A DNA stretch of 64,000 nucleotides. Origin: Romanomermis culicivorax. Its lineage: Eukaryota > Nematoda > Enoplea > Mermithida > Mermithidae. The notes beneath the pieces are model-generated. The model made no database searches. It had not been told where the DNA came from and saw only the letters and a list, made by a program, of their open reading frames with translations. Position 1 is the stretch's first letter, and each line of letters begins with the position of its first letter. The stretch lies in assembly GCA_963922205.1 (NCBI GenBank), contig CAWUHX010000086.1, positions 744,001 through 808,000 of the forward strand. The letters run 5' to 3'. Of the stretch, positions 6,673-8,560 are shown piece by piece. The position numbers and the translations under genes are program-made.

Positions 6673-8560
6673 CACTGCCCCTCAGGCCAGATTTGTGAAA
6701 TTGAGTGAACACTTACAAATTACGTTTGTACAGTTGTTTTTGATAATAAAATTGACCTTGGTAGCATCACTGTTTCTAGGGGTGAGTTTGTCAGCACCGG
6801 CGGCTCAGTATCAATTTTGCGGTCTCTCAAGAAGCGGACATCCACTTGAGTTACCCCAGCATGTAGAGTGTAAACCACCGCAATCTTCATGGAGCCCGCG
6901 GCGCATGAATGTTACGGTGTATGTCCCTAGCTCAGACCCGATTACAACCACAGCGTGGAAATGCACATTGCGCTCCCGCAAAGTCTGCACCAACACTGGT
7001 TTCTTCGGCTCTAGGGGCATCACTGCAGACGTCATTACCACTCAGCACTTAGCGCCTGCGGCATGCACGCTAGCACATCGCACTAAGATGTTTGGTTCAC
7101 AAAAACTTGTCGGCATTCGCCCTGGCTTTTATAGCACAAACCAAACATTGGAAGTGATGTACGCATGGTGCTGCAGCGACGTCTGCAAGACAGTGACTAA
7201 CCTCTTCATCGAGGAGGGACAAGTCGCTTCGTGGGACGGCACTACGGCCCTAAGCACCTTAGGCGATGTAGGTGGATGCAGTCCCACTGCAGGCCAGTGC
7301 ACTACTCTGGACGGGGTCATTGTCTGGCCTGCACAAAACTTCACGGCGCGGTGTCATTATCACCCCAAGGGAAATTACACTGCGTCCATGTCAGGGAACC
7401 ACGTCATCATTGATGATCTACAGGTTGCCCTCAAGATCCCGGGAAACTCCCGCGTCTTCCAACTGTGCCCAGAACTACGTTCCACCACAGTCCGGACGGA
7501 TCAGGGTCTTCTCCTTCGCATCCATGGGAGATACAATTTGACCCAAAACTTGTTCAGAATGGCAAAGGACACCCGTCCCGATCCTGTCAATGCCAAACTG
7601 AACTATCTGGCTCAGCAGATCAAGGAGTCGGAAATTAACGGTTTCCGGTTCACGTGGCTTGAGCTCTGCTCTCACGCTCAACGCTATCTTGATCTGACTT
7701 GGCAGTTGCTTCGCTTCGACCCTACCTTGGGTGCCCGGGCATTCCTCCAGAGGAATGACCTGACGGCGGAATTCACAGGCGATGCACTGACAATATGGCC
7801 GTGTCAGAAGGTCAACGCCACCTACGTTTACCACTCGTACCGGGTGGGGAACGTTTGCTACAAGTACTTACCTGTACAGGTCGGCGGCACCATCTACTTC
7901 GCCACCCCCGGTGGTCCGGATCTCATTAAATCTAGCCCAATCGTGCCGTGTCATCACCACTTTGCAGGGATTTTCCGAAATCGCTCGGGCTGGTTTACTG
8001 AGTCTGGCGCGGTCCATGTGAGCCACATCCCACTGGAACTCTTCTGGAAGCAGCGTTTCAATATCACTCACTTTGAGGCACCGGCGCTCTTCCATGACCA
8101 GTTGGCGATGACCCCTTCAAACTTTGCCTTCTTTAAACAATACGTTTACAAGACTGAGCAAATTGAAGCGGTACTCAACCGGCTGGTAAACTTTACCGCT
8201 GGTCTATCCCTGCAACCAGACGCCATTTACCAGGCCTTTGCAGGGGTAGGAACCGACATCAAGGCCTCTCTGGAAGGTGTCGGTTTGGCAGCAAACCATG
8301 TTATTACGGGTCAACAACACACCCTCGCCCAGGGCTTGCATGCTGTCCTGAGCGGGCCGGTCCAGTTGATCTTTAACATCCTAATTACCCTGACAGTGCT
8401 GATCGGTGTCGGATACCTTGCCTATCTAGGTGTATCTTATTATCTCAGCTACCGTCTGCGGAGCAAACAGGTCAGGTTTGTTAGCCGCTTCTCCCCGTTG
8501 GGTCTTTACCGCAAAGTCCAACGCTGGATCGGTTTTCACTACGTGCAAAACGATGTGCCC
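6673..8560 (+). CDS. env: Envelope-like type I membrane glycoprotein between gag and pol
   Basis: In the same frame as gag, a hydrophobic signal-like segment (6721-6790, ending near LSAPAAQ) leads into a ~530-residue Cys-rich ectodomain. The ectodomain has nine N-glycosylation sequons (NVT, NQT, NFT, NYT, NLT, NAT, NRS, NIT, NFT). A single strong transmembrane segment at 8365-8455 (LIFNILITLTVLIGVGYLAY) is followed by a basic cytoplasmic start. There is no ATG at the signal peptide; the first in-frame ATG is near 6906. A spliced leader, or polyprotein translation from Gag, is therefore needed; TTTGTACAG at 6724-6732 could serve as an acceptor. The CYKYLPV...PC...GW arrangement near 7857-7995 is reminiscent of class III-like fusion glycoproteins captured by other retroelements, but this is a weak inference. 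It is described as found; the break pattern is not interpreted as functional. Confidence 0.75.

What the first reader, a model, noticed from the sequence alone, without database searches (positions are those of the whole stretch)
6673..8560. Envelope-like glycoprotein placed between gag and pol
The sequence shows a signal-like segment, nine N-glycosylation sequons, many cysteines and one C-terminal transmembrane helix, all in the gag reading frame and 5' of protease-RT. In known retroviruses and errantiviruses env lies 3' of pol. This placement implies a different expression strategy (polyprotein or internal spliced RNA) and independent capture of an envelope.
Basis: partly seen in the sequence, partly recalled or inferred. 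Interest (0 to 1): 0.88.

Follow-up and report, generated by a model that had tools for sequence, protein, structure and literature searches.

The report
Envelope gene between gag and pol
A worm genome carries many copies of a retrovirus-like element whose virus-type fusion glycoprotein sits between the capsid gene and the polymerase genes, in one long reading frame with both, instead of at the end where such elements normally keep it.

Summary
Confirmed. Window 6734-8422 (frame 2) encodes a glycoprotein: signal-like segment, nine sequons, 16 ectodomain Cys, one C-terminal TM. It matches Pfam Monjiviricetes_fusion (E 2.4e-14) and, as a profile, herpesvirus gB: a class III-type fusogen. It lies 3' of gag and 5' of protease-RT-RNaseH-integrase in one LTR element. 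The host matches Romanomermis culicivorax by assembly size and scaffold number. The order is not a quirk of this copy: 52 of 73 scored env places in the genome (window included) lie in one open frame of at least 3,091 aa. In 8 of 8 loci of other families (about five lineages) protease follows env. Two database proteins are gag-env and env-PR-RT fusions. Env and PR-RT distances agree (r 0.96), so env was probably captured once, long ago. Inferred mechanism: a Gag-Env-Pol polyprotein crossing the ER membrane in and out. Correction: frame 2 is open, but about 5.9-6.66 kb is constrained in frame 1, an overlapping acidic ORF. The window copy is damaged in gag and pol; env is intact. Against: one stop splits gag from env in two other-family loci. 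No RNA data, no structure.

The parts
1..468 (+). 5' LTR, right part (the LTR begins about 958 bases before the window)
   Evidence: LTRs 1426 and 1440 bp, TGTCAC...GTGACA, 1.9% mismatches, flanking GTGT/GTGT
469..480 (+). Presumed primer-binding site (TGGCGAGGCTGG...)
   Evidence: position directly 3' of the LTR and TGG start; tRNA not identified
4130..5880 (+). gag (capsid and Cys/His-rich nucleocapsid), frame 2; interrupted in this copy by a stop ending the ORF at 4636
   Evidence: (weak Ty3_capsid E 0.011 and Retrotrans_gag E 0.029, below cut-off); uninterrupted in 14 of 20 other copies
5881..6672 (+). Overlapping ORF in frame 1, acidic C-terminus (263 aa stop to stop; first ATG 5959), in the same DNA as the basic frame-2 linker between gag and env
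6734..6790 (+). Internal signal-like hydrophobic segment of Env
   Evidence: no in-frame ATG between those at 6515 and 6905
6791..8365 (+). Env ectodomain, class III-type fusion glycoprotein (PF24664)
8366..8422 (+). Env transmembrane helix
   Evidence: hydropathy
8561..9259 (+). Retropepsin-like domain 1 (DTG... LILGLDFLEQF, motif read by eye) and Ser/Arg-rich tail, in frame with Env
   Evidence: (E 0.012, below cut-off); no tblastn match at E 1e-3 in 8 of 8 other-family loci
9260..11914 (+). Retropepsin 2, reverse transcriptase, RNase H
   Evidence: closest solved: Ty3 RT, E 1.1e-90
11797..13230 (+). Integrase (H2C2 and rve); in another frame in this copy
   Evidence: that it lies in the long frame of other copies is inferred from the open-frame lengths
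13787..15226 (+). 3' LTR

Best explanation
The window holds one damaged copy of a Ty3/gypsy-type LTR retroelement family that encodes Gag, a class III-type viral fusion glycoprotein (Env), protease, RT, RNase H and integrase in that order, in many copies in a single long reading frame. Shown: the order, the shared gag-env-protease frame in 14 of 20 fetched copies, purifying selection on env in frame 2, the env-then-protease order in other families, co-divergence of env with PR-RT. Inferred: the element is translated as one Gag-Env-Pol polyprotein. The hydrophobic segment before Env acts as an internal signal sequence, so that Gag stays in the cytosol, the Env ectodomain enters the ER lumen, the C-terminal TM stops transfer and protease-Pol is again cytosolic (the single-polyprotein topology used by flaviviruses; recalled comparison). 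Signal peptidase and the element's protease then separate the parts, and Env lets particles leave and enter cells. Also inferred: the overlapping frame-1 ORF is a separate accessory protein made from an alternative (probably spliced) RNA.
For: Fusion family and membrane anatomy. Single frame: 14 of 20 fetched copies from gag to the protease-like domain; 52 of 73 scored env places lie in an open frame of at least 3,091 aa (recounted), and 71 of 73 envs have no internal stop. Selection: variable sites in env fall 98/38/20 at frame-2 codon positions 3/1/2 and in gag 105/50/35. Other families: env followed by protease on the same strand in 8 of 8 loci, RT start also in reach in 6 of 8; gag with CCHC knuckles upstream in 3 of 4 fetched stretches, running open to the env signal in 2 of them, L052 and L055. 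Database: P0001 is env-PR-RT-RH in one ORF, P0002 is gag-env in one ORF with a gag homologous to those of the worm families. Co-divergence: Mantel r 0.96 over 9 elements, 0 of 2000 permutations; 0.88 and 1 of 2000 for 7 elements with one per close pair. No in-frame ATG between those at 6515 and 6905, so Env has no initiator close to its signal.
Against: No RNA or protein data. In two other-family loci gag and env are in the same frame but parted by one stop: about 300 bases before the env match in L054/L051 and about 1.1 kb before it in L053/L048, where no CCHC was found; these may be lesions or real termination. Equal molar Gag, Env and Pol from one polyprotein would be unusual for a particle. 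The frame-2 linker (5.9-6.66 kb) is poorly constrained as protein while frame 1 is constrained, which would also fit a message that splices past it. Splice-acceptor-like stretches exist near 5.86-5.94 kb. Signal and TM are from hydropathy only.
Confidence: 0.64

Rival explanations
1. Same gene order, but Env is expressed as in retroviruses and errantiviruses from a spliced subgenomic RNA that borrows a start codon from gag or the leader; the open gag-env frame is tolerated or used only for Gag-Pol.
For: Env has no nearby ATG of its own. The leader is 3.66 kb long with 42 ATGs and acceptor-like stretches occur near 5.86-5.94 kb. Two other-family loci have a stop between gag and env. Cer1 makes CERV from spliced exons with one exon in a unique frame (PMC10309623, passages), and errantiviral env is spliced (PMC12992720, passages).
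Against: The acceptor-like sequence near 6733 in the window is not seen at that place in the other-family loci printed (read by eye). Open frames run from gag through env to the protease-like domain in 14 of 20 copies and from gag to env in L052 and L055, which splicing alone does not require. P0002 is predicted as one gag-env ORF.
Confidence: 0.27
2. Env has lost its entry role and is kept for another reason, such as blocking superinfection or a structural role in intracellular particles.
For: Copies are numerous within one genome, as for an intracellular parasite; no R-X-K/R-R site in 6674-9256.
Against: Cysteines are kept between relatives, sequons and membrane anatomy are present in the window copy, and env evolves under purifying selection in its own frame. 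Class III fusogens such as VSV G need no cleavage (recalled).
Confidence: 0.06
3. Chimeric copy or late insertion: a glycoprotein EVE landed by chance inside one gag-pol element.
For: Jingchuvirales glycoprotein EVEs near LTR elements are reported in arthropods (PMC10084718, passages).
Against: 73 scored env places in this genome, the same order in 8 of 8 other-family loci and in P0001 and P0002, and co-divergence.
Confidence: 0.01

Closest known systems
Errantiviruses / insect endogenous retroviruses (Drosophila gypsy, ZAM)
   Same: Ty3/gypsy-type pol, LTRs, captured non-retroviral envelope.
   Different: Their env is a third ORF 3' of pol, made from spliced RNA, and is baculovirus F-type (PMC12992720, passages); here it is between gag and pol, in one frame, and class III-type.
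Anakin and other Jingchuvirales-glycoprotein retroelements of arthropods
   Same: Captured negative-strand-virus glycoprotein (that chuviruses belong to Monjiviricetes is recalled).
   Different: Anakin is BEL/Pao (PMC7642597, passages); the nematode glycoprotein EVEs in PMC10084718 (two, Event-3) were flanked by simple repeats and low-complexity DNA, with no gag-env-pol element described in the passages read.
Atlas virus and other nematode belpaoviruses
   Same: Nematode LTR element with one long polyprotein that includes a viral glycoprotein.
   Different: Order Gag-Pol-Env, phlebovirus-like class II glycoprotein at the C-terminus, BEL/Pao (PMC9094657, passages).
Cer1 of C. elegans
   Same: Nematode LTR element with no stop between gag and pol, and an accessory protein (CERV) with one exon in a unique frame; its Ty3/gypsy membership is recalled.
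   Different: CERV is 3' of pol and is an RNA-export factor, not an envelope (PMC10309623, passages).
Flavivirus capsid-prM-E polyprotein (recalled, works like)
   Same: Capsid, internal signal, glycoprotein, TM and enzymes in one polyprotein.
   Different: No relation by descent; a resemblance of inferred topology only, not tested.

Membership tests
Ty3/gypsy (Metaviridae) LTR retroelements | RT-RNase H closest to Ty3 | tested here: met
   best solved match Ty3 RT 4ol8, E 1.1e-90; next kind E 2.4e-58. No RT tree with reference clades was made
Ty3/gypsy (Metaviridae) LTR retroelements | PR-RT-RH-IN order, TG...CA LTRs, short target duplication | tested here: met
   4-bp duplication in 3 of 3 copies examined
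Ty3/gypsy (Metaviridae) LTR retroelements | tRNA primer-binding site | tested here: inconclusive
   TGGCGAGGCTGG directly 3' of the LTR; tRNA not identified
Errantivirus | env as third ORF 3' of pol | tested here: not met
   env 5' of protease-RT
Errantivirus | F-type (baculovirus-like) envelope | tested here: not met
   matches PF24664 and gB; no F-type family among the matches (E up to 1)
Retroviridae | gag-pol-env order | tested here: not met
Monjiviricetes-type (class III) fusion glycoproteins | Sequence profile above the family cut-off | tested here: met
   52.7 bits, cut-off 27, matching 305-449 of 629 aa; profile A2 hits 9cu4 (E 1.1e-4) and gB 8y48 (E 2.9e-4)
Monjiviricetes-type (class III) fusion glycoproteins | Class III fold with internal fusion loops | not testable with these tools
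   Structure prediction switched off
Nematode belpaoviruses (Atlas) | BEL/Pao RT and C-terminal phlebovirus-like glycoprotein | tested here: not met
   Ty3-type RT, env internal and PF24664

The most novel reading that the evidence does not exclude
An old clade of LTR retroelements in nematodes, and possibly other hosts, has its envelope between gag and pol and makes Gag, Env and Pol as a single polyprotein that threads the ER membrane in the manner of a flavivirus. One family has in addition overprinted an accessory gene in the gag-env linker and gained a second retropepsin-like domain just behind the Env membrane anchor. This would be a third way, besides env splicing and C-terminal env fusion, for a reverse-transcribing element to express an envelope.
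Probability: 0.48. Interest if true: 0.9.

Novelty: new variant of a known kind. Interest (0 to 1): 0.82.

Why it matters
Envelope capture is how a retrotransposon becomes a retrovirus-like agent, and where the passages read here give the order, env is 3' of pol. A conserved gag-env-pol order, in many copies in one frame, shows another solution, with a testable prediction about how one polyprotein can place capsid and enzymes in the cytosol and envelope in the ER. The several families and many copies in one genome make the history of a capture readable, and the overlapping ORF gives a case of gene overprinting in an LTR element. The likely host parasitises mosquito larvae (PMC10879605, passages); mosquitoes carry retroelements with chuvirus glycoproteins (PMC7642597, passages), so exchange between host and parasite becomes a concrete, untested question.

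Tried and rejected
Considered and rejected: env as a late insertion in one copy; the frame-1 stretch as a pair of compensating indels in the window copy (it is in another frame than gag and env in sister copies too); a conserved splice acceptor at about 6733 (not seen in other families); a domain identity for the frame-1 protein (no Pfam match up to E 1; no PDB match better than E 0.24); relatives in viral contigs (0 confirmed); canonical nematode SL1 in the genome (0 exact matches), which left trans-splicing by that leader unsupported; Rfam families at the gathering threshold and tRNAs in the window (none). A second protein search with P0002 found only itself.

Full report
What was checked. 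The window's frame 2 is open from 4637 to 9259. Inside it, 6734-8422 has a hydrophobic signal-like segment, nine sequons (3.0 expected in shuffled ectodomains, P 0.0014), 16 ectodomain cysteines and one C-terminal TM. Pfam names the segment Monjiviricetes_fusion (PF24664, E 2.4e-14, over the cut-off) with a weak Borna disease virus G match below its cut-off. A profile of four relatives (A2: window, pieces of P0001 and P0002, P0003) reaches 9cu4 'ORF8' (E 1.1e-4; a herpesvirus gB, recalled) and 8y48, named glycoprotein B (E 2.9e-4). The best reading is a class III-type viral fusion glycoprotein.

The element. Protease, RT-RNase H and integrase follow 3', with Ty3 as the closest solved RT (E 1.1e-90). 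The LTRs are 1426 and 1440 bp, TGTCAC...GTGACA, with GTGT on both sides; the 5' LTR starts about 958 bases before the window. LTR mismatches are 1.89% in this copy, 2.17% in a copy on contig 330 and 0.42% in one on contig 112; all three have 4-bp target duplications. The leader from LTR to the presumed gag ATG at 4130 is 3.66 kb.

Host. The window lies in a 359,112,060-bp, 595-contig assembly. It holds 50 nematode cuticle-collagen N-terminal matches, against 0 of 14 control genomes, whose identity the tool does not give. Size and scaffold number equal Romanomermis culicivorax v2 (359.1 Mb, 595 scaffolds; PMC10879605, passages). That paper reports 68.2% repeats (passages).

Other copies. The PR2-RT query gave 52 matches, 51 of them 97-100% identical and one a short piece. 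The env query gave 73 scored places of 4,235 first-look candidates. Of these 73, window included, 52 lie in an open frame of at least 3,091 aa (tally, recounted), and 71 envs have no internal stop. These lists are capped and ranked by similarity, so they favour young copies. Of 20 copies fetched from gag to the start of pol, gag, env and the protease-like domain are in one open frame in 14; four more have both genes with interruptions; two lack large parts. The window copy itself is interrupted in gag, between the two protease-like domains, and before integrase; env is intact.

Selection. Across the window and 18 of the 20 copies (L027 and L028 dropped as incomplete), variable sites at frame-2 codon positions 3/1/2 number 105/50/35 in gag, 98/38/20 in env and 37/21/14 in the first protease-like domain: each is evolving as a protein in frame 2. 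From 5926 to 6660 the pattern flips: 79 variable sites at the third position of frame 1 against 29 and 29, and codon-usage scores favour frame 1 there (the model was trained on the other coding parts of this element). In that stretch, frame 1 has no stop in 17 of 19 sequences, frame 2 none in 16 of 19, and the third frame 3 to 8 in every one; the length is a multiple of three in 18 of 19. Given the variable sites, 7.2 frame-2 stops would be expected by a rough count; two copies have one each and one frameshifted copy has four. Synonymous shuffling of frame 1 leaves frame 2 open in 2% of trials. So a 263-codon frame-1 ORF (acidic, 32 D+E against 19 K+R) overlaps a basic frame-2 linker (57 K+R against 6 D+E in 284 aa): frame 1 is the constrained protein, and frame 2 seems to be held open as a spacer. 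No slippery site was identified by eye (no scan was run); acceptor-like stretches lie near 5.86-5.94 kb.

Other families. PF24664 searched over the same genome scored 68 places of 2,320 candidates, all 68 over the cut-off, against 0 of 14 control genomes; 13 of 68 lie in open frames of 2,000 aa or more (recounted). The eight best loci were returned and have envs 36-47% identical to the window's over long stretches. In 8 of 8, protease follows env on the same strand, and RT begins within reach in 6 of 8; the protease match in L049 is short. These eight include close relatives (L045/L050, L046/L047/L049), so they represent about five lineages. Of four upstream stretches fetched, three (L052, L054, L055) hold a gag ORF with CCHC knuckles, and in L052 and L055 it runs open to the env signal. 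Against a universal single frame: in the contig 150 element (L054/L051) the gag frame and the env frame are the same but one stop lies about 300 bases before the env match, and in the contig 147 element (L053/L048) a 368-aa ORF without CCHC ends in the same frame about 1.1 kb before env. Whether these are lesions or real termination is open. The first protease-like domain of the window's family has no tblastn match at E 1e-3 in 8 of 8 of these loci; it is only weakly similar to the second (27 aa, E 4e-4) and below Pfam's cut-off.

Beyond this genome. The protein searches found P0001 (1,424 aa, env-PR-RT-RH), P0002 (1,186 aa, gag-env) and P0003-P0005 (env only). The gag of P0002 is homologous to the gags of L052, L054 and L055 (E 7e-13 to 1e-14). 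Their hosts are unknown. Env and PR-RT distances over nine elements (window, P0001 and seven loci; L049 dropped for want of a PR-RT segment) correlate at r 0.96 (0 of 2000 permutations), and at r 0.88 for seven with one per close pair (1 of 2000); the two trees agree except for the weakly supported place of L051. One old capture followed by co-divergence is the simplest account.

Expression. No in-frame ATG lies between those at 6515 and 6905, so Env has no close initiator. In the loci printed, the signal-like segment mostly continues the upstream linker, and the acceptor-like sequence near 6733 is not shared (read by eye). I therefore favour a Gag-Env-Pol polyprotein with an internal signal and a stop-transfer TM. 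The rival is a spliced env RNA, as in errantiviruses (PMC12992720, passages). Both leave the order as found. The stops moved a little weight to the rival.

Prior work. Searches of the open PMC library for env between gag and pol, gag-env-pol, and class III or chuvirus glycoproteins in gypsy or nematode elements showed no description of this order (listings; passages of PMC10309623, PMC9094657, PMC10084718, PMC7642597, PMC12992720, PMC5408684, PMC8672886, PMC10879605, PMC5177903; outline and abstract of PMC12440569). Subscription papers, most preprints and Repbase were not searched, so priority is not established.

Noticed in passing
window 5881-6672 (frame 1): Overprinted accessory ORF under purifying selection, acidic tail, no Pfam or PDB match; in L052 no ORF of 120 aa or more lies in another frame on that strand.
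   Followed up: partly
window 8561-9259: Second retropepsin-like domain with DTG directly behind the Env membrane anchor; no match in 8 of 8 other-family loci.
   Followed up: partly
window 1635-2166: CRE-like TGACGT motif repeated about every 65 bp: nine here, 11 in the leader 469-4129, 0.84 expected.
   Followed up: no
window 469-4129: Very long leader (3.66 kb) with 42 ATGs before gag.
   Followed up: no
window 13393-13518: Three tandem copies of about 41 bp 3' of integrase.
   Followed up: no
window 13265-13298 and 13755-13788: Near-identical motif around GAGGACG[T/C]CCTTTTTCGAAGGACCGCCGTG twice, the second abutting the 3' LTR.
   Followed up: no
window 20470-21309 (-): Coding sequence of a host phosphoenolpyruvate carboxykinase (PF17297, E 5.5e-52) about 5 kb from the insertion.
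   Followed up: no
whole genome G000: No exact canonical SL1 sequence, although the host is a nematode.
   Followed up: no
L054/L051 and L053/L048 (contigs 150 and 147): Same-frame stop between gag-side ORF and env in these two other-family copies; unclear whether lesion or real gag end.
   Followed up: partly
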